64,000 nucleotides of DNA from positions 62,001 to 126,000 of the forward strand of contig NZ_JAGSOV010000054.1 of the NCBI RefSeq assembly GCF_023898865.1, given 5' to 3'. The position numbers were made by a program, and so were the translations under genes. This DNA is from Pseudonocardia humida. Lineage in GTDB: Bacteria > Actinomycetota > Actinomycetes > Mycobacteriales > Pseudonocardiaceae. The notes beneath the pieces were generated by a model that saw nothing but the letters and a program-made list of their open reading frames with translations, was not told the DNA's origin and searched no databases. This document shows, piece after piece, positions 20,589 to 25,192 of this stretch. The first letter of the stretch is position 1. Every line of letters starts with the position of its first letter.

Positions 20589-20954
20589 TCAGGCCGCGGT
20601 GACCTTCTCCGCGCCCCGTCCCGCGGCGGCCTTCGCCGCGGCCAGCTTGCGCCCGGCCGACGACGGCCGGGGCGCGTCCAGGAACCGGCGCACGCCCTTC
20701 ATGCCGTAGCGGTCGACCGCGGTCTTGATCAGACCGAAGATGGCGCCCTGCAGCGTGGCGGCGATCAGCACCTCGCGGGTGCTGTACTCGTTCGACAGGG
20801 GCTGCGGGGTCCCGTCCTCCTTGGACACCTTCTTCCAGATGACCCCGAAGACCCGGCCGGCCAGCAGGCCGCCCAGCATCCCGAAGGCCACGCCGAACGG
20901 CTTGTAGGCCAGCTTGGCCAGCCCGCTCAGCTCGTTGCCGTCCTGCTTGCTCAT
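20589..20954 (-). CDS. DUF4235-family membrane-associated protein
   Basis: A 121-residue protein. The core LAYKPFGVAFGMLGGLLAGRVFGVIWKKV, then STREVLIAATLQGAIFGLIKTAVDRYG, is typical of the actinobacterial DUF4235 family: two Gly/Ala-rich hydrophobic segments that are probably membrane helices. The tail is Ala/Lys-rich (RKLAAAKAAAGRGAEKV). The ATG (20952-20954) is preceded by GAGGGGCG and overlaps the stop of the upstream 83-residue gene as ATGA, so the two are coupled. The family has no established function. Confidence 0.82.
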   Translation of the reverse strand: MSKQDGNELSGLAKLAYKPFGVAFGMLGGLLAGRVFGVIWKKVSKEDGTPQPLSNEYSTREVLIAATLQGAIFGLIKTAVDRYGMKGVRRFLDAPRPSSAGRKLAAAKAAAGRGAEKVTAA

Positions 20955-21202
20955 CGCCCCTCCGCTCGTGACGCCTCGGCCCTGGCCTCGGCGCCGGTCT
21001 CCCCGGAGTAGCCGGCGTCCTGGCCGGCCACCCTGCCCACGAACTCCTCGTTCTCGTCGGTGCCGGTCGTGGTGGCGCCGTCCTGGTCGGCGGCGTCCGC
21101 CCCACCGGGATGACCGTCGCGTCCCGGGTCCGCACCCCCGGTCTCGCGGGTGCGGGCCAGATGTGGGTCGGCGGACACGTCGTCCTCGGAGGTACCAGGC
21201 AT
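20951..21202 (-). CDS. Small acidic conserved protein coupled to the DUF4235 gene
   Basis: An 83-residue hydrophilic, Asp/Glu/Gly-rich protein without membrane segments. The C-terminal half, NEEFVGRVAGQDAGYSGETG, reads like a conserved block I associate with short actinobacterial proteins of unknown role; the N-terminal half is low-complexity (GGADAADQDGATTTGTDE). The frame is supported by its ATGA overlap with the DUF4235 gene and by the conserved block. Start ATG 21200-21202 has no clear ribosome site, so the start is tentative. No function assigned. Confidence 0.65.
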   Translation of the reverse strand: MPGTSEDDVSADPHLARTRETGGADPGRDGHPGGADAADQDGATTTGTDENEEFVGRVAGQDAGYSGETGAEARAEASRAEGR

Positions 21203-21367
21203 GCACGTGCAGTACCCGCGCGGAGGTGGATCGATGCGTGTTCCCGCCGTTCGGAGGGGGTCCGTTTGCCCCGGGCGCGGGCCGGGCACCTGCCATGACG
21301 AAGGGCGTAACGCGATCGGGGGGTCGCGTGAAGGTAGCGGAACCGGTGGGGGAGCGAGGAACAAGCG

Positions 21368-21874
21368 ATGGATCGGGCAGTGGCGCAGGGGCAGCCGGGT
21401 GGCGGTGGGGTCGACCCGCGCTCGGTCGCGCCGGGGTCGCACGTCGCGGGGGGCGGCGCGACGGACCCCGACGAGCGCCCCGACGGCCTGGAGTTGCGCA
21501 TCCCGGCCTCGGTCGACCGGCTGCGCCCGCTGCGCCGTCGGATCGAGGCCTGGGCGCTGGTGCGCGACCTGAGCGACGTCGAGCTGGCCGACCTGCAGCT
21601 GGCGCTGGGCGAGGCGGTCTCCAACTCGATGGAGCACGCCTACCGCGAGACCGAGGCCGGAACGGTCGACATCGAGCTCGACGTGCGCTCGACCGACGCC
21701 GGGCGCGGGGTCGTCGTCCGCGTCGTCGACCGGGGCCGCTGGAAGCCGGCGACCTCGCGCCCCAGCCACCGCGGCCGGGGCCTGAGGATGATCGAGGGTT
21801 TGTCCGTCGACATGCGGGTGACCAGCAACGACTCCGGTACCGAGGTCGTCTTCACGGTGTTGCTCGGCGGCTGA
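21368..21874 (+). CDS. RsbW-like ATP-binding protein (anti-sigma/serine-kinase family)
   Basis: A 168-residue protein. A disordered N-terminus of about 45 residues precedes a GHKL ATPase domain. N-box: LQLALGEAVSNSMEHAY, with the Mg-binding Asn. G1 box: VRVVDRGRWKP, with the nucleotide-contacting Asp. G2 box: SHRGRGLRMIEGL. This is the HATPase_c_2 subfamily of RsbW/SpoIIAB-type anti-sigma factors, which hold a sigma factor or phosphorylate a STAS antagonist. No sigma factor or free STAS gene adjoins it, but two further partner-switch proteins lie 1-3 kb away on the other strand. A GGGAGCGAGG stretch precedes the ATG. Confidence 0.85.
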   Translation: MDRAVAQGQPGGGGVDPRSVAPGSHVAGGGATDPDERPDGLELRIPASVDRLRPLRRRIEAWALVRDLSDVELADLQLALGEAVSNSMEHAYRETEAGTVDIELDVRSTDAGRGVVVRVVDRGRWKPATSRPSHRGRGLRMIEGLSVDMRVTSNDSGTEVVFTVLLGG

Positions 21875-21913
21875 GCGCCCGCCGGGGTCTGCACACGGTC
21901 TACACACGACCGA

Positions 21914-21944
21914 GCCGCCGCCCCGATCGGGGGCGGCGGCTCAG
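21914..21944 (+). terminator. Bidirectional terminator, 13-bp stem
   Basis: GAGCCGCCGCCCC pairs perfectly with GGGGCGGCGGCTC across a five-base loop. It separates the convergent ATPase and SARP-type genes. Confidence 0.8.
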
Positions 21945-21970
21945 GTGCGTGTCGGTATGCGGTGCGGTCG

Positions 21971-22846
21971 TCAGCGGGTGGTGCCGGGCACGGAGCCGCC
22001 GGCCACCAGGCGGCGTCCGCCACCGGCCCCGCGCACGGAGCGCAGGCCGGGCAGCTGCACCGCCGAGCGCGGCATCGGGCGCCGGGCCCGCAGCATCGGC
22101 CACACCGGGGCGGTGGGCAGGACCAGCCCGTCGAGGCCGGACGGGTCGGGCCCGCCGACGCTGGAGCGCAGCAGCTCGCGGTAGTCGTCGTACTGGGCCA
22201 CCGCCGCGGCGATGTTGCCCTGGGCCAGGTGGGCCTCGATCAGGGCGCGGCGGGCGCTCTCGCGGCTGGGGGCGACCCGCACGGCCGACTCGGCCAGCGC
22301 GACGGCCTCGGCGTGCGCGCCGGCGGCGGACAGCCGCAGGCTGCGCTCCTCGATGGCGTGCAGGCGCAGCTGGCGGAACCGCTCGCGCTCCACGGCGATC
22401 CAGGTGGCGGTCCAGCCGGGCAGGATGTCGGACGAGAGCAGCGAGATGTCCGGGGTGTCGTCGACCGGGATCTCCGGCAGCCCGCGCACCAGGCCCAGCG
22501 CGTCGGCGAGGTCGACCTCGACGTCGGCGGCCAGGGAGAGCGTGGGGCCGTCCTCGGTGAGCAGCCCGGGTACGTCGACGGCGGCGATGGCGTCGGACAG
22601 CAGGCGGGCGGCGGCCTCGGCGGCGGTGCCGGGCCAGAGGTCGGCGGCCAGCGCGGCGCGCTCCTGGGGCCGCGGGTGGACGGCCAGGTAGGCGACGAGA
22701 CGACGGGCGTCGACCCCCAGCGGAACGGCGGAGCCGCGCGAGGTGAGGGTGAACGAGCCGAGCACCGTGACCCGGTGGGATGCGAGCCCGAGGGTGGCGG
22801 TGTGGGGGGCCCGCGTCGGTGCAGATCGTCGCTGATCGTCAGACAT
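21971..22846 (-). CDS. SARP/BTAD-type transcriptional regulator
   Basis: A 291-residue protein. An OmpR-like winged helix (HRVTVLGSFTLTSRGSAVPLG...RRLVAYLAVHPRPQERAALAADLWP, about residues 22-90) is followed by a bacterial transcriptional activator domain of helical repeats (about 130-250: WIAVERERFRQLRLHAIEERSLRL and APSRESARRALIEAHLAQGN). The C-terminal 40 residues are Arg/Pro-rich. Such proteins activate transcription; in streptomycetes many control secondary metabolism, but no biosynthetic cluster is present here. Start ATG 22844-22846 precedes the domain by about 20 residues; the open frame extends upstream without similarity. It lies 188 bp downstream of the MEDS genes, same strand. Confidence 0.82.
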   Translation of the reverse strand: MSDDQRRSAPTRAPHTATLGLASHRVTVLGSFTLTSRGSAVPLGVDARRLVAYLAVHPRPQERAALAADLWPGTAAEAAARLLSDAIAAVDVPGLLTEDGPTLSLAADVEVDLADALGLVRGLPEIPVDDTPDISLLSSDILPGWTATWIAVERERFRQLRLHAIEERSLRLSAAGAHAEAVALAESAVRVAPSRESARRALIEAHLAQGNIAAAVAQYDDYRELLRSSVGGPDPSGLDGLVLPTAPVWPMLRARRPMPRSAVQLPGLRSVRGAGGGRRLVAGGSVPGTTR

Positions 22847-23034
22847 GGTGGTCCCAAACGTGGAAGTGCCGGATGTGTCGGATGTGCCGCGCGGTGATGG
22901 GCCGTGCGCAGCCCGTCGGCGCCCAGTCCGCGGAGAAGTGTTCTCGCTGTGGAGCGTCTTGCCAAGGGCCGGATTGGTCACAGTCCGACCCCGCTGGTCA
23001 CGGTCCGACGACCGACCACCTCCCCCGATCATAC

Positions 23035-23997
23035 TCACGGGCTCGCTCGCATGCGCACGTGGGTGCCCCTGTCGTCGGTCCACACGTGCAGGGAGTCACA
23101 CAGTTGGCGGGCGATCCACACGCCGCGCCCGCGCGGGTTGGACGAGTGCGGCGCCTGCAGCCCGGGCAGCGGGTCGCGCAGGCTGCCGGCGTCGTGGATC
23201 TCGCAGACCACCCCGTCGTCGGTGACCCAGATGAGCAGCTCGGCGCGCGCGTCGCCGTGCTCGACGGCGTTGGTGGCGACCTCGTTGACGGCCAGCACGA
23301 CGTCCTCGGCGCGCTCGCGCGGGCAGTTCGCCGACAGCAGGGCGTCCTCGACGGCGCTGCGGACGTCGTGCAGCTGCCACGCGCCGAAGGGCAGGCGCAG
23401 CTCCGGGGGACCGAGCAGCACCGGCGCGGGGGCGGGCTGCTCGGCCAGCACCTCGCGCGGGGCCAGGTGGTGGGGGTTGTGGGCCATCTCGCCGCGCACG
23501 GCCAGCAGCGGGTGGTTGCGCCGGGCGCCGTCGAGGATCTCCCGGTGCAGCGGCAGCTCGGGGTAGAAGCAGGTCATGGTGACCGGCAGCTCGGCGAGCG
23601 CGATGTTGAACGCGGCGTCGAGCTCGGTCCAGAAGGTGCCGTCGACGCCGTCGAGCCGCGAGGTGTGCTCGTTGATCACGATGAGCGGGCGCCCGGTCGC
23701 GGAGACCAGCTCGCGCAGCTCCCGGGCGCGCCGGGCGGCCAGGGTCTGCCCGGACTCGCCGTCGGGCCCGTCGGGCCGGCTGAGCAGGATGAGCCCGGCC
23801 GTGCCGTCCAGCTCCCGCTGCACGGCGCTCTCGGTGGCCGGGTCGACCGAGAGCGCCACCGGGGTGCCGCCGCGCAGCCCGTCGAGGACCATCGGCAGCA
23901 CCTGGTCCACCAGGTCGGTGCGGGAGCGGTGGAAGGCCGCGGCGTGCTGCAGGCGCACCCAGCGCCCGCTGCGCGTGTTCTCAACCCGCACGGCCAC
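23035..23997 (-). CDS. MEDS-domain anti-sigma-type ATPase
   Basis: A 320-residue two-domain signalling protein. The N-terminal MEDS (DcmR-like sensory) domain (about 10-180) includes FHRSRTDLVDQVLPMVLDGL, GRPLIVINEHTSRLDG and MTCFYPELPLHREILDGA. The C-terminal HATPase_c_2 domain (about 200-315) has N-box VVLAVNEVATNAVEHG, G1 EIHDAGSL and G2 NPRGRGVWIARQL. It probably binds ATP and acts as an anti-sigma factor or serine kinase whose activity is set by the MEDS domain. GTG start. It lies 15 bp behind a MEDS-STAS gene, its likely partner. Confidence 0.85.
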   Translation of the reverse strand: MAVRVENTRSGRWVRLQHAAAFHRSRTDLVDQVLPMVLDGLRGGTPVALSVDPATESAVQRELDGTAGLILLSRPDGPDGESGQTLAARRARELRELVSATGRPLIVINEHTSRLDGVDGTFWTELDAAFNIALAELPVTMTCFYPELPLHREILDGARRNHPLLAVRGEMAHNPHHLAPREVLAEQPAPAPVLLGPPELRLPFGAWQLHDVRSAVEDALLSANCPRERAEDVVLAVNEVATNAVEHGDARAELLIWVTDDGVVCEIHDAGSLRDPLPGLQAPHSSNPRGRGVWIARQLCDSLHVWTDDRGTHVRMRASP

Positions 23998-24012
23998 CCC
24001 CGGGGGACGGGC

Positions 24013-24930
24013 TCACGACGGGCTGTGGTGGCGGCCGCCCTCGCGGCGGTGCTGCCCGGTGCGGGGCACCACCACCAGCTGGGCGGCGAACGGGGCCCCG
24101 CAGCGGTCGAGCACGCGCACCACCCGGGGGCGCACGCCGGTCAGCACGAGGCGGTGGGTGCTGGGGAACTCCTCGGCCGCGTGCACGAGGCTGACGGCCC
24201 CGGCGACGTCGAGGAAGCGCAGCGAGGACAGGTCCAGGGTGATGTCGCTGGAGGCCCAGTGCGAGCGCAGGGCCTGGTCGAGCACGGTCTCCAGGAGCTT
24301 GCGGATCTGCGGGCGGTTGCTGTGGTCGACCTCGCCGGCCAGCCGCGCGGTCGACGGGTCGGACCGGGTGATCCGCAGGAGGTTGTCGTCGTAGACGGCC
24401 TCGCCGATCAGCTCCGTCTCGTGCAGCTCGCGCATCTGCGAGACGGCGTCCTCGTCGAAGCGCGGCAGGTCGTAGCGGCACAGCAGGCGCGCGCTCGGGT
24501 GCGAGCGCAGCACCCGGTCGACGACCTGCTCGTACTCGACGACCCGGTCGACGCCGCCCGCGCGCAGCAGCTCCGAACCGCACTCGCCGCTCATCCGCAG
24601 CCCGGTGAAGCCCTGCGCGGAGGCCCGGTCGATCTGGTCGAGGAACATCTCCTCGTACCGGGCGACCGGGCGGGCGGCCGCCGCCCTGGTCTGCGCGGTG
24701 GGGACGATGACCATGCGGCCCTCGTCGAGCGCCCGGCGCACCGGGACGCCGTCGTCGGCCATCCGGCCCAGCACGGCGCCCGCCGTCTCGTCCTCGAAGT
24801 ACACGACGCGCTCGTCGGCGGCCAGCCCGCCGGCCAGCCACTGCGCGGTGACCTCCCAGAGCTGCTCGTCGCTCACCGGGACGGCACACGTGTGACCCAC
24901 GAGGGACATGTCCTCGATCGTCCTCACCAT
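24013..24930 (-). CDS. MEDS-STAS protein (anti-anti-sigma type) lacking the phospho-serine
   Basis: About 305 residues: an N-terminal MEDS domain (about 10-175, with ERVVYFEDETAGAVLGRM, RYEEMFLDQIDRASAQGFTGL and RLLCRYDLPRFDED) and a C-terminal STAS domain (about 190-290, with LAGEVDHSNRPQIRKLLETVL and DITLDLSSLRFLDVAGAVSLV). STAS antagonists of the RsbV/SpoIIAA kind carry a phosphorylatable Ser after the Asp of this last motif; here the residues are Val and Ala (about 242-243). Regulation by the neighbouring ATPase would have to work by binding alone, or by ligand sensing in MEDS. Start uncertain: ATG 24930, with GTG 24939 or ATG 24909 as alternatives. Confidence 0.8.
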   Translation of the reverse strand: MVRTIEDMSLVGHTCAVPVSDEQLWEVTAQWLAGGLAADERVVYFEDETAGAVLGRMADDGVPVRRALDEGRMVIVPTAQTRAAAARPVARYEEMFLDQIDRASAQGFTGLRMSGECGSELLRAGGVDRVVEYEQVVDRVLRSHPSARLLCRYDLPRFDEDAVSQMRELHETELIGEAVYDDNLLRITRSDPSTARLAGEVDHSNRPQIRKLLETVLDQALRSHWASSDITLDLSSLRFLDVAGAVSLVHAAEEFPSTHRLVLTGVRPRVVRVLDRCGAPFAAQLVVVPRTGQHRREGGRHHSPS

Positions 24931-25192
24931 GGCGCACACCCGGTCCGAGCCACGACAGCGGGAACGCCGTGACCGGCGGCGACCCGTGTCACGACATGGC
25001 CACTTTACGGCGAGCCGATCGGGGCCGCTGAGTCCGCGACCAGGTACGACACGTCGAGCAGTCGGTCCGCGGCGCCCAGCGGTCGAGCGGTCGGTTGGGC
25101 GGTGGGCCCAGTTCGTCCGCCCGGTGGTACAGCAAGTGTCCGATCAGACGCGCAGCGTCACAAGCGGGGGCGCCGCCGCTCGGCGCGGGCGG

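What the first reader, a model, noticed from the sequence alone, without database searches (positions are those of the whole stretch)
20589..24930. Compact sensory partner-switch block without its own sigma factor
Seen: MEDS-STAS, MEDS-ATPase and a SARP/BTAD regulator in one direction, facing a separate RsbW-like ATPase and a DUF4235 gene pair. Both the antagonist-type and the ATPase-type protein carry the same MEDS sensory domain. Established: MEDS is linked to small-molecule sensing (DcmR) and these ATPases bind sigma factors. Inference: paired MEDS domains may read one signal on both arms of a switch, with the SARP regulator as possible output. This is my best candidate for an undescribed system in the window.
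Basis: partly seen in the sequence, partly recalled or inferred. Interest (0 to 1): 0.62.

Follow-up and report, generated by a model that had tools for sequence, protein, structure and literature searches.

The report
Twin-sensor switch with a DNA-binding regulator
In the Pseudonocardia genomes sampled, two sensor proteins that look like halves of a stress switch sit beside one DNA-binding regulator; the antagonist half has lost the residue that normally works such switches, and a repeated DNA site in front of the genes suggests that the regulator is wired to them.

Summary
MEDS-STAS (24013-24930, -), MEDS-HATPase (23035-23997, -) and a BTAD/SARP-type regulator (21971-22846, -) face an RsbW-like ATPase (21368-21874, +) and a small ORF plus DUF4235 (20589-21202, -). 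The genus is Pseudonocardia. The three genes keep order and strand in 60 of 60 genomes sampled, one of them by a BTAD fragment at a contig end. Outside the genus a MEDS-HATPase follows MEDS-STAS in 24 of 32 loci examined (22 genera), with this BTAD type beside none. NCBI names the ATPase arm 'RsbA family'. MEDS resembles KaiC without its P-loop, as the literature already lists. New here: (1) 109 of 110 MEDS-STAS lack Ser/Thr at the SpoIIAA/RsbV phosphoacceptor position, so a classical phospho-switch is unlikely although the ATPase site is intact; (2) a 21-bp-period direct repeat, reminiscent of SARP operators, precedes MEDS-STAS in 46 of 58 trio loci and has one match in the window; 9 of 10 copies without BTAD lack it even with one mismatch; (3) the BTAD gene has its own conserved promoter-like element. 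I read this as a ligand-driven, phosphorylation-independent partner-switch variant linked to a SARP-type regulator. Client and ligand are unknown.

The parts
24013..24930 (-). MEDS-STAS protein: P-loop-less KaiC-like sensor domain plus STAS antagonist domain, with Val at the phosphoacceptor position
23035..23997 (-). MEDS-HATPase protein: KaiC/RecA-like sensor domain plus RsbW/SpoIIAB-like ATPase with intact N-box Glu/Asn
21971..22846 (-). BTAD/SARP-type regulator, 291 aa
25052..25082 (-). Candidate operator: two heptamers (box 1 with one deviation from the family consensus) with a 21-bp period; the only match to the extended pattern in the 64-kb window
25001..25008 (-). GTAAAGTG, -10-like element of MEDS-STAS, 43 bp downstream of the second heptamer
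   Evidence: sequence; a GTANNGTG element was found after the repeat in 17 of 35 relatives, at 40-43 bp in 16 of them
22937..22967 (-). Conserved promoter-like element of the BTAD gene, CCTTGGCAA-N13-GAGAACACT (reads as TTGGCA-N17-AACACT); one match in the whole own genome at up to 2 mismatches
21368..21874 (+). RsbW-like single-domain ATPase, convergent to the BTAD gene; a looser part of the neighbourhood (tblastn hit in 29 of 60 relative loci, after dropping the L121 hit, which is the MEDS-ATPase itself)
20589..20954 (-). DUF4235 protein, 121 aa; hit in 24 of 60 relative loci; probably not part of the unit
20951..21202 (-). Small ORF, 83 codons, overlapping the start of the DUF4235 gene; no Pfam match

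Best explanation
The block is a signalling unit in which two proteins with the same kind of sensor domain form the arms of a partner switch. MEDS-ATPase is the holder: an RsbW/SpoIIAB-like ATPase that binds a client, most likely a sigma-70-family factor encoded elsewhere (inferred). MEDS-STAS is the antagonist that pulls the ATPase off its client (inferred from architecture). Because MEDS-STAS has a hydrophobic residue where SpoIIAA and RsbV carry the phosphorylated serine (shown), the switch is probably thrown not by phosphorylation but by a ligand or redox change read by the P-loop-less KaiC-like MEDS domains, which keep an invariant Cys and His plus an invariant or nearly invariant N-terminal His in the aligned sets of both arms (conservation shown, role inferred). 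The BTAD/SARP-type protein is a DNA-binding partner of the unit in Pseudonocardia. It is predicted to bind the 21-bp-period direct repeat before the MEDS operon, and possibly boxes before its own gene, so that it feeds back on the switch (site shown, binding inferred).
For: Order and strand conserved in 60 of 60 genomes, one by a fragment. MEDS-STAS followed by MEDS-HATPase in 24 of 32 loci outside the genus. Val, Ala, Leu, Ile, Met, His or Arg at the phosphoacceptor column in 109 of 110 MEDS-STAS; the column was fixed by alignment to SpoIIAA structures. Invariant E239 and N243 in 21 of 21 aligned MEDS-ATPases. Fold: MEDS of MEDS-STAS to KaiC Z 14.1, rmsd 3.0, 163 aligned; STAS to RsfB Z 13.6, 2.4, 103; ATPase domain to SpoIIAB Z 16.3, 2.9, 125. 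No Walker A in 206 of 206 MEDS domains. Direct repeat exact in 46 of 59 trio loci, in 0 of 10 Pseudonocardia copies without BTAD and 0 of 37 upstream regions in other genera; with one mismatch allowed 52, 1 and 1. Extended pattern 2.64 per kb upstream against 0.005 per kb elsewhere.
Against: Stand-alone STAS proteins of the own genome often lack the Ser/Thr too (14 of 25, read by eye), so its loss is not unique to MEDS-STAS. One MEDS-STAS outside the genus has Thr (L190). No sigma factor lies near, so the client is a guess. The distance test did not single out the BTAD gene: its residual correlation with the ATPase (0.58) is no higher than with the neighbouring TPP gene (0.62), and TPP also reaches 0.44 with the ATPase. 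The direct repeat was defined on the same loci on which it is counted, its 21-bp period equals seven codons, and trio loci are orthologous, so co-occurrence with BTAD is partly common descent. In L065, L067 and the loci L117-L121 the best repeat has 2 or 3 mismatches, and with one mismatch allowed other spacings (16-26 bp) reach 2 to 15 of 59 loci against 52 at 21 bp. No interaction, binding or ligand is measured.
Confidence: 0.45

Rival explanations
1. The client is not a sigma factor but the BTAD/SARP protein itself: MEDS-ATPase sequesters the activator and MEDS-STAS releases it in response to a signal.
For: The BTAD gene follows this MEDS tandem in 60 of 60 Pseudonocardia genomes (one by a fragment) and was detected in none of the 32 non-genus loci; no sigma-70 region 2 in any of the 60 loci L063-L122, stretches of 3 to 15 kb; the direct repeat tracks the BTAD-linked copies.
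Against: BTAD relatives occur without MEDS partners: 21 of 46 genera of the family, the own genus included, have a match, and no MEDS gene was found in 23 loci with about 1.5 kb on each side, though my gene caller missed the BTAD gene itself in four of them. RsbW-type ATPases are known to bind sigma factors; binding of a SARP is without precedent that I know of. No interaction data.
Confidence: 0.18
2. The BTAD gene is only a conserved neighbour: the MEDS pair and the BTAD regulator act in separate pathways and stay together by general synteny.
For: Flanking genes are also conserved in many species: luciferase-like 47, OsmC 45, TPP enzyme 40 of 60 loci, lower bounds because several loci end at a contig end. 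The BTAD gene has its own promoter-like element. Distance residuals do not single it out.
Against: In the divergent loci L117-L120 the trio stays intact while OsmC and the luciferase-like gene are not found in the stretch and TPP lies some kb further off. The repeat before MEDS-STAS is exact in 46 of 59 trio loci, 0 of 10 copies without BTAD.
Confidence: 0.22
3. A classical phospho partner switch: MEDS-ATPase phosphorylates MEDS-STAS at another residue, or phosphorylates a stand-alone STAS protein elsewhere, and a PP2C phosphatase resets it.
For: The ATP site and N-box are intact and the fold is that of the SpoIIAB/RsbW kinases. Eleven of 25 stand-alone STAS domains of the own genome carry Ser/Thr at the site (read by eye), so substrates may exist in trans. 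A serine (S235) is invariant in the 42 aligned MEDS-STAS.
Against: No Ser/Thr at the canonical position in 73 of 73 Pseudonocardia MEDS-STAS and 36 of 37 others (split by my count).
Confidence: 0.15

Closest known systems
NCBIfam NF041045, anti-sigma factor RsbA family regulatory protein
   Same: MEDS plus HATPase over the full length (17-317 against 2-301 of the model), 197.3 bits
   Different: Below the curated cut-off of 210; paired here with a MEDS-STAS protein and a BTAD gene
SpoIIAA/SpoIIAB and RsbV/RsbW partner switches
   Same: STAS and ATPase folds; ATP site conserved
   Different: No phosphoacceptor Ser/Thr in the STAS arm; sensor domain on both arms; no sigma gene nearby
[quoted passage not shown] PMC10950880 passages)
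   Same: Precedent for an antagonist switched without phosphorylation
   Different: RsfA has no MEDS domain (recalled); relationship not tested
Stressosome RsbR-type sensor-STAS proteins (recalled; starts of abstracts in the listing)
   Same: Sensor domain fused in front of a STAS domain
   Different: Different sensor fold (recalled); here the partner ATPase carries the same sensor
SARP/AfsR-type regulators (AfsR structure 8hvr)
   Same: Residues 27-240 align with AfsR, E 4.8e-4; BTAD above cut-off; direct heptamer repeat with a helical-turn period before the neighbouring operon
   Different: No Pfam Trans_reg_C match; the repeat has a 21-bp period, whereas the classical 11 or 22 bp is recalled; linked to a partner-switch pair

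Membership tests
MEDS (PF14417) | Score above the Pfam cut-off of 29.8 bits | tested here: met
   99.6 and 36.2 bits
Inactivated KaiC-like domain | KaiC-like fold | tested here: met
   Z 14.1, rmsd 3.0, 163 aligned to KaiC 4ijm_E for MEDS-STAS; weaker for MEDS-ATPase, Z 10.5, rmsd 3.8, 159 aligned to 7s65_A, with other RecA-fold rows slightly higher
Inactivated KaiC-like domain | No Walker A motif | tested here: met
   0 of 206 MEDS domains longer than 100 aa match GxxxxGK[ST]
RsbA family, NF041045 | Score above the curated cut-off of 210 bits | tested here: not met
   197.3 bits for the window protein; 328.4 for a relative, L204
RsbV/RsbW-type phospho partner switch | Phosphoacceptor Ser/Thr in the STAS domain | tested here: not met
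   Val in the window; 109 of 110 MEDS-STAS lack Ser/Thr; column fixed
RsbV/RsbW-type phospho partner switch | Intact ATP-binding N-box in the ATPase | tested here: met
   E239 and N243 invariant in 21 of 21
RsbV/RsbW-type phospho partner switch | Cognate sigma factor encoded beside it | tested here: not met
   0 of 60 loci L063-L122 (3 to 15 kb each); nearest in the window over 11 kb from the block
RsbV/RsbW-type phospho partner switch | PP2C phosphatase resetting the antagonist | not tested
   Not searched at the trio; SpoIIE in 2 of 81 scanned neighbours of MEDS loci outside the genus
SARP/BTAD regulators | BTAD domain | tested here: met
   56.1 bits, cut-off 22.1
SARP/BTAD regulators | N-terminal winged-helix DNA-binding domain | tested here: inconclusive
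   No Pfam Trans_reg_C hit; weak alignment to AfsR over residues 27-240
SARP/BTAD regulators | Binds direct heptamer repeats | tested here: inconclusive
   Conserved 21-bp-period repeat before MEDS-STAS; 8-base direct repeats at 11 bp before 13 of 23 distant BTAD relatives against 3.0 in mononucleotide shuffles, other periods at most 9 of 23, many of the loci related; no binding assay

The most novel reading that the evidence does not exclude
A partner switch that works without phosphorylation and whose client is a SARP transcription factor: both arms read one ligand through paired P-loop-less KaiC-like domains, the ATPase arm holds the BTAD/SARP activator, the STAS arm frees it, and the freed activator acts on the MEDS operon through the 21-bp repeat.
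Probability: 0.15. Interest if true: 0.8.

Novelty: new variant of a known kind. Interest (0 to 1): 0.5.

Why it matters
Partner switches are usually explained by phosphorylation of the antagonist. A widespread actinobacterial tandem in which the antagonist cannot be phosphorylated at the usual place, and in which both partners carry the same inactivated KaiC-like sensor, would be a different way of throwing the switch. The Pseudonocardia copy adds a dedicated regulator gene and a short, sharply defined DNA site, which makes the wiring directly testable and gives a first handle on what actinobacterial MEDS domains sense.

Tried and rejected
Coevolution: pairwise-distance residuals with OsmC and the luciferase-like gene as controls gave ATPase-STAS 0.47 (38 loci) and 0.52 (25 loci), BTAD-ATPase 0.60 and 0.58, BTAD-STAS 0.30 and 0.15; but the neighbour TPP gave 0.62 with BTAD, 0.44 with the ATPase and -0.03 with STAS (25 loci). 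So the test gives at most weak support for the STAS-ATPase pairing and says nothing for BTAD.

Neighbours of MEDS loci outside the genus: no Pfam family occurs in more than 3 of 81 scanned proteins (81 of the 140 ORFs listed were given; only the first 25 of 146 families are shown). Sigma-70 region 2 appears in 4 of 32 of those loci, in stretches reaching about 7 kb on each side (L212, L215, L216, L217, with a model built from 30 of the 77 own-genome matches).

The BTAD promoter element as a regulon-wide motif: rejected, one match in the own genome. The looser 7-mer repeat pattern has 18 matches in the window against 1.18 in shuffles; 21 bp is seven codons, so I take that excess as codon periodicity and that pattern as not specific; the extended pattern is.

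Rows dropped: in the upstream analyses, loci whose contig ends too close (fewer than 250 bases; fewer than 200). In one search the 5 stand-alone STAS domains found in the loci were kept apart (2 of 5 have Ser). The regular expression misplaced the site in several own-genome STAS rows; the count 11 of 25 is my reading of the printed sequences, with L251 unclear. In one search the RsbW-like hit of L121 is the MEDS-ATPase itself and was dropped (29, not 30).

Structures by sequence for MEDS-ATPase alone gave nothing; the profile did. A consensus promoter/terminator scan of the block found nothing.

Literature: searches, in open-licence full text only, listed no paper on MEDS-STAS proteins or on this gene trio as far as titles and starts of abstracts show. 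Of the 5 papers that hold 'MEDS domain' I saw passages of three (PMC11507031, PMC11784639, PMC5847659), not the other two. Passages only were also seen of PMC12750041, PMC11796333, PMC8346170 and PMC10950880. Subscription papers are not covered.
Full report
What is there. MEDS-STAS (24013-24930, -) is followed after 15 nt by MEDS-HATPase (23035-23997, -). The BTAD gene (21971-22846, -) starts 188 nt further on. The RsbW-like gene (21368-21874, +) converges on it. The DUF4235 gene (20589-20954, -) overlaps the end of an 83-codon ORF (20951-21202, -) that has no Pfam match.

Where it comes from. A scan of named genomes returned 52 loci; 50 of them (L252-L301) align over most of the protein and bear titles of Pseudonocardia or Pseudonocardiales. 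P. lacus is nearest at 96% identity; the tool warns that records very near the window genome may be left out. The window genome has 8.29 Mb and 10 matches to the Pfam MEDS model. They form four MEDS-STAS/MEDS-ATPase pairs (contigs C27, C5, C58 and C129, the last in reversed gene order) and two single genes (C3, C124). A further MEDS-ATPase-like match on C94 appeared only in the protein search.

Conservation of the block. In 60 genomes of the genus, MEDS-STAS was found in 60, MEDS-ATPase in 60 and BTAD in 59 at E <= 1e-15. In the sixtieth (G164) the contig ends inside a BTAD fragment that lies in the right place (L121). Order and strand are the same in all (for the relatives, for the window genome). 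In the 50 named loci, largely the same genomes, 46 have all three genes; the other four (L273, L275, L284, L291) are second copies without BTAD. Flanking genes are less constant: over the 60 loci fetched, luciferase-like 47, OsmC 45, TPP enzyme 40, RsbW-like 29 (one further hit is the MEDS-ATPase itself), DUF4235 24. These are lower bounds, because several loci end at a contig end and one of the 60 (L122) is a second MEDS copy without BTAD. In the most divergent loci of some length (L117-L120; MEDS-STAS 37-40% identical to the window's) the trio is intact while the luciferase-like and OsmC genes are absent from the stretch and TPP lies some kb off. Two relatives carry MEDS-ATPase in two pieces (G153, G194), which I take as frameshifts or assembly errors.

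Outside the genus. A single-sequence search found MEDS-STAS in 5 of 143 other genomes of the family (12 of 150, of which 7 are of the genus, the window genome included). A profile search found it in 41 of 394 genomes of the class, 22 of 138 genera, with only 6 candidates scored per genome, and in 24 of 121 genomes of the order, 15 of 50 genera; these counts include the own genome and are lower bounds. In 32 loci from 22 genera, MEDS-STAS is followed on the same strand by a MEDS-HATPase in 24, by a HATPase without MEDS in 4, and by neither in 4; a BTAD domain of the type in the trio was detected beside none. BTAD relatives exist in 21 of 46 genera of the family, the own genus included, often beside a gene that looks like a Mn-catalase (Pfam-confirmed for L129 and L132) and once beside a Pvc16_N gene. 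No MEDS gene was found in the 23 such loci inspected, with about 1.5 kb on each side; my gene caller missed the BTAD gene itself in four of them. The tandem is therefore widespread, and its coupling to a BTAD gene looks like a Pseudonocardia invention.

The STAS arm. Aligned to SpoIIAA structures, the motif FLDVAG of the window lies on FMDSSG, with Val at the serine that is Ala in the entry 1tid (that this is phosphoserine 58 is recalled). Of 110 MEDS-STAS domains from all loci, 109 lack Ser/Thr there (Val 79, Ala 14, Leu 10, Ile 2, Met 2, His 1, Arg 1; Thr 1 in L190). By my count of the same call, 73 of these domains are from Pseudonocardia (none with Ser/Thr) and 37 from other genera (one Thr). 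As a control, 30 STAS domains of the own genome were listed; of the 25 that are not MEDS-STAS, 11 have Ser/Thr by my reading, and of the 5 MEDS-STAS none. So loss of the serine is common among STAS proteins at large but close to universal in MEDS-STAS.

The ATPase arm. The N-box Glu and Asn are invariant in 21 of 21 aligned MEDS-ATPases. The profile finds RsbW and SpoIIAB among solved structures (E 1.7e-10 and 1.1e-5). NCBIfam calls the type 'anti-sigma factor RsbA family'; the window protein scores 197.3 against a cut-off of 210, a relative 328.4.

The MEDS domain. AlphaFold models are confident (mean pLDDT 89.3 and 90.8). The MEDS domain of MEDS-STAS matches KaiC and FlaH (Foldseek best E 1.1e-6; KaiC Z 14.1, rmsd 3.0, 163 aligned). 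The MEDS domain of MEDS-ATPase matches RecA-fold proteins more weakly (RecA Z 11.3, rmsd 3.7, 149 aligned; KaiC Z 10.5, rmsd 3.8, 159 aligned). None of 206 MEDS domains has a Walker A motif. In MEDS-STAS His12, Cys150 and His169 are invariant in 12 of 12 diverse rows and in 42 of 42 Pseudonocardia rows; in MEDS-ATPase Cys143 and His162 are invariant in 21 of 21 and His18 is nearly so. That MEDS is an inactivated KaiC domain is already in print (PMC5847659, table passage). PMC11507031 cites a 2005 paper, which I could not read, for a hydrocarbon-sensing role of MEDS and for the hypothesis that it negatively regulates SigB in actinobacteria (passages).

DNA elements. Upstream of MEDS-STAS there is a direct repeat, [CT]TC[AG]NCG-N14-[CT]TC[AG]NCG, in 35 of 49 named loci, all on the coding strand; a GTANNGTG element was found downstream of it in 17 of these 35, at 40-43 bp in 16. 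With exact boxes, other periods from 11 to 32 bp give 0 to 6 loci. In the loci L063-L121 an exact repeat is present in 46 of 59 and one with at most one mismatch in 52; with one mismatch allowed, other periods of 16-26 bp reach 2 to 15 of 59. Controls: Pseudonocardia MEDS-STAS copies without BTAD, 0 of 10 exact and 1 with one mismatch; other genera, 0 of 37 exact and 1 with one mismatch. With an extended pattern the site occurs upstream in 46 of 58 trio loci and 8 times in 1580 kb of strand elsewhere; in the window it has one match, 25052-25082, whose first box carries the one deviation that the pattern allows. The pattern was defined on these loci, so the contrast with the controls matters more than the absolute count. 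Direct heptamer repeats spaced by helical turns are, from memory, how SARP regulators bind; the BTAD protein is the one recognised DNA-binding candidate in the block.

The BTAD gene has a separate element, C[CT]T[AT]GGCA[AG]-N13-G[AG]GAA[CG]ACT, present in 29 of 47 loci, always with N13; CTTGGCAA alone is in 37. It is unique in the own genome at up to two mismatches. Upstream of it lies GTGACG, mostly at 16 bp (in some 15 or 26) from the TTGGCA, and in part of the loci CGTCAC at 22, 32-35 or 56-57 bp further up (one extra pair at 7), roughly multiples of a helical turn. CGTCACC occurs before 21 of 47 Pseudonocardia BTAD genes (1.0 expected from mononucleotide shuffles), before 12 of 23 distant BTAD relatives (0.9 expected) and before 7 of 50 MEDS-STAS genes (1.2 expected); three of the distant relatives have GTCACC repeated at 11 bp. 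The window itself and P. lacus lack CGTCAC before the BTAD gene. I read these as candidate boxes of the BTAD family, not as proven ones.

Mechanism. Shown: architecture, order, loss of the phosphoacceptor, intact ATP site, predicted fold, and conserved DNA elements. Inferred: that MEDS-STAS and MEDS-ATPase bind each other, that a ligand or redox change on MEDS throws the switch, that a distant sigma factor (77 Sigma70_r2 matches in the genome, 76 above the cut-off) or the BTAD protein itself is the client, and that BTAD binds the repeat. The distance test gives at most weak support for pairing of the two MEDS proteins and is neutral on BTAD. RsfA of the SigF switch, which works by the redox state of two cysteines, is a precedent for an antagonist controlled without phosphorylation (PMC10950880 passages).

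Verdict. It is a variant of known partner switches rather than a new class. Its two unusual features, an antagonist without its phosphoacceptor and a SARP-like operator tied to a dedicated BTAD gene, are specific and testable.

Noticed in passing
L132, L145, L147 and other loci: Small BTAD regulators outside Pseudonocardia often sit divergent to a gene that looks like a Mn-catalase, with 11-bp-period direct repeats upstream (13 of 23 regions against 3.0 in shuffles; Mn_catalase confirmed by Pfam for L129 and L132).
   Followed up: partly
L151:388-969: A small BTAD regulator lies next to a Pvc16_N gene, suggesting control of a contractile injection system by this regulator family.
   Followed up: no
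L015 (own genome, contig C124): A single MEDS-STAS gene is followed by a TetR gene and a 1169-aa SARP/NB-ARC/TPR regulator: a second, different coupling of MEDS-STAS to a SARP.
   Followed up: no
L013 (own genome, contig C58): MEDS-STAS, MEDS-ATPase, a GAF-ANTAR protein and a stand-alone STAS gene lie in a row.
   Followed up: no
L218:6311-10077 and L209:702-3372: Arrays of alternating MEDS-STAS and MEDS-ATPase genes, apparently tandem duplications of the pair; an AhpC/TSA-like gene seems near in L218 (Pfam counts are not per locus, so this rests on the sequence).
   Followed up: no
own genome: 77 matches to Sigma70_r2, 76 over the cut-off, a large set of candidate clients for orphan anti-sigma factors.
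   Followed up: no
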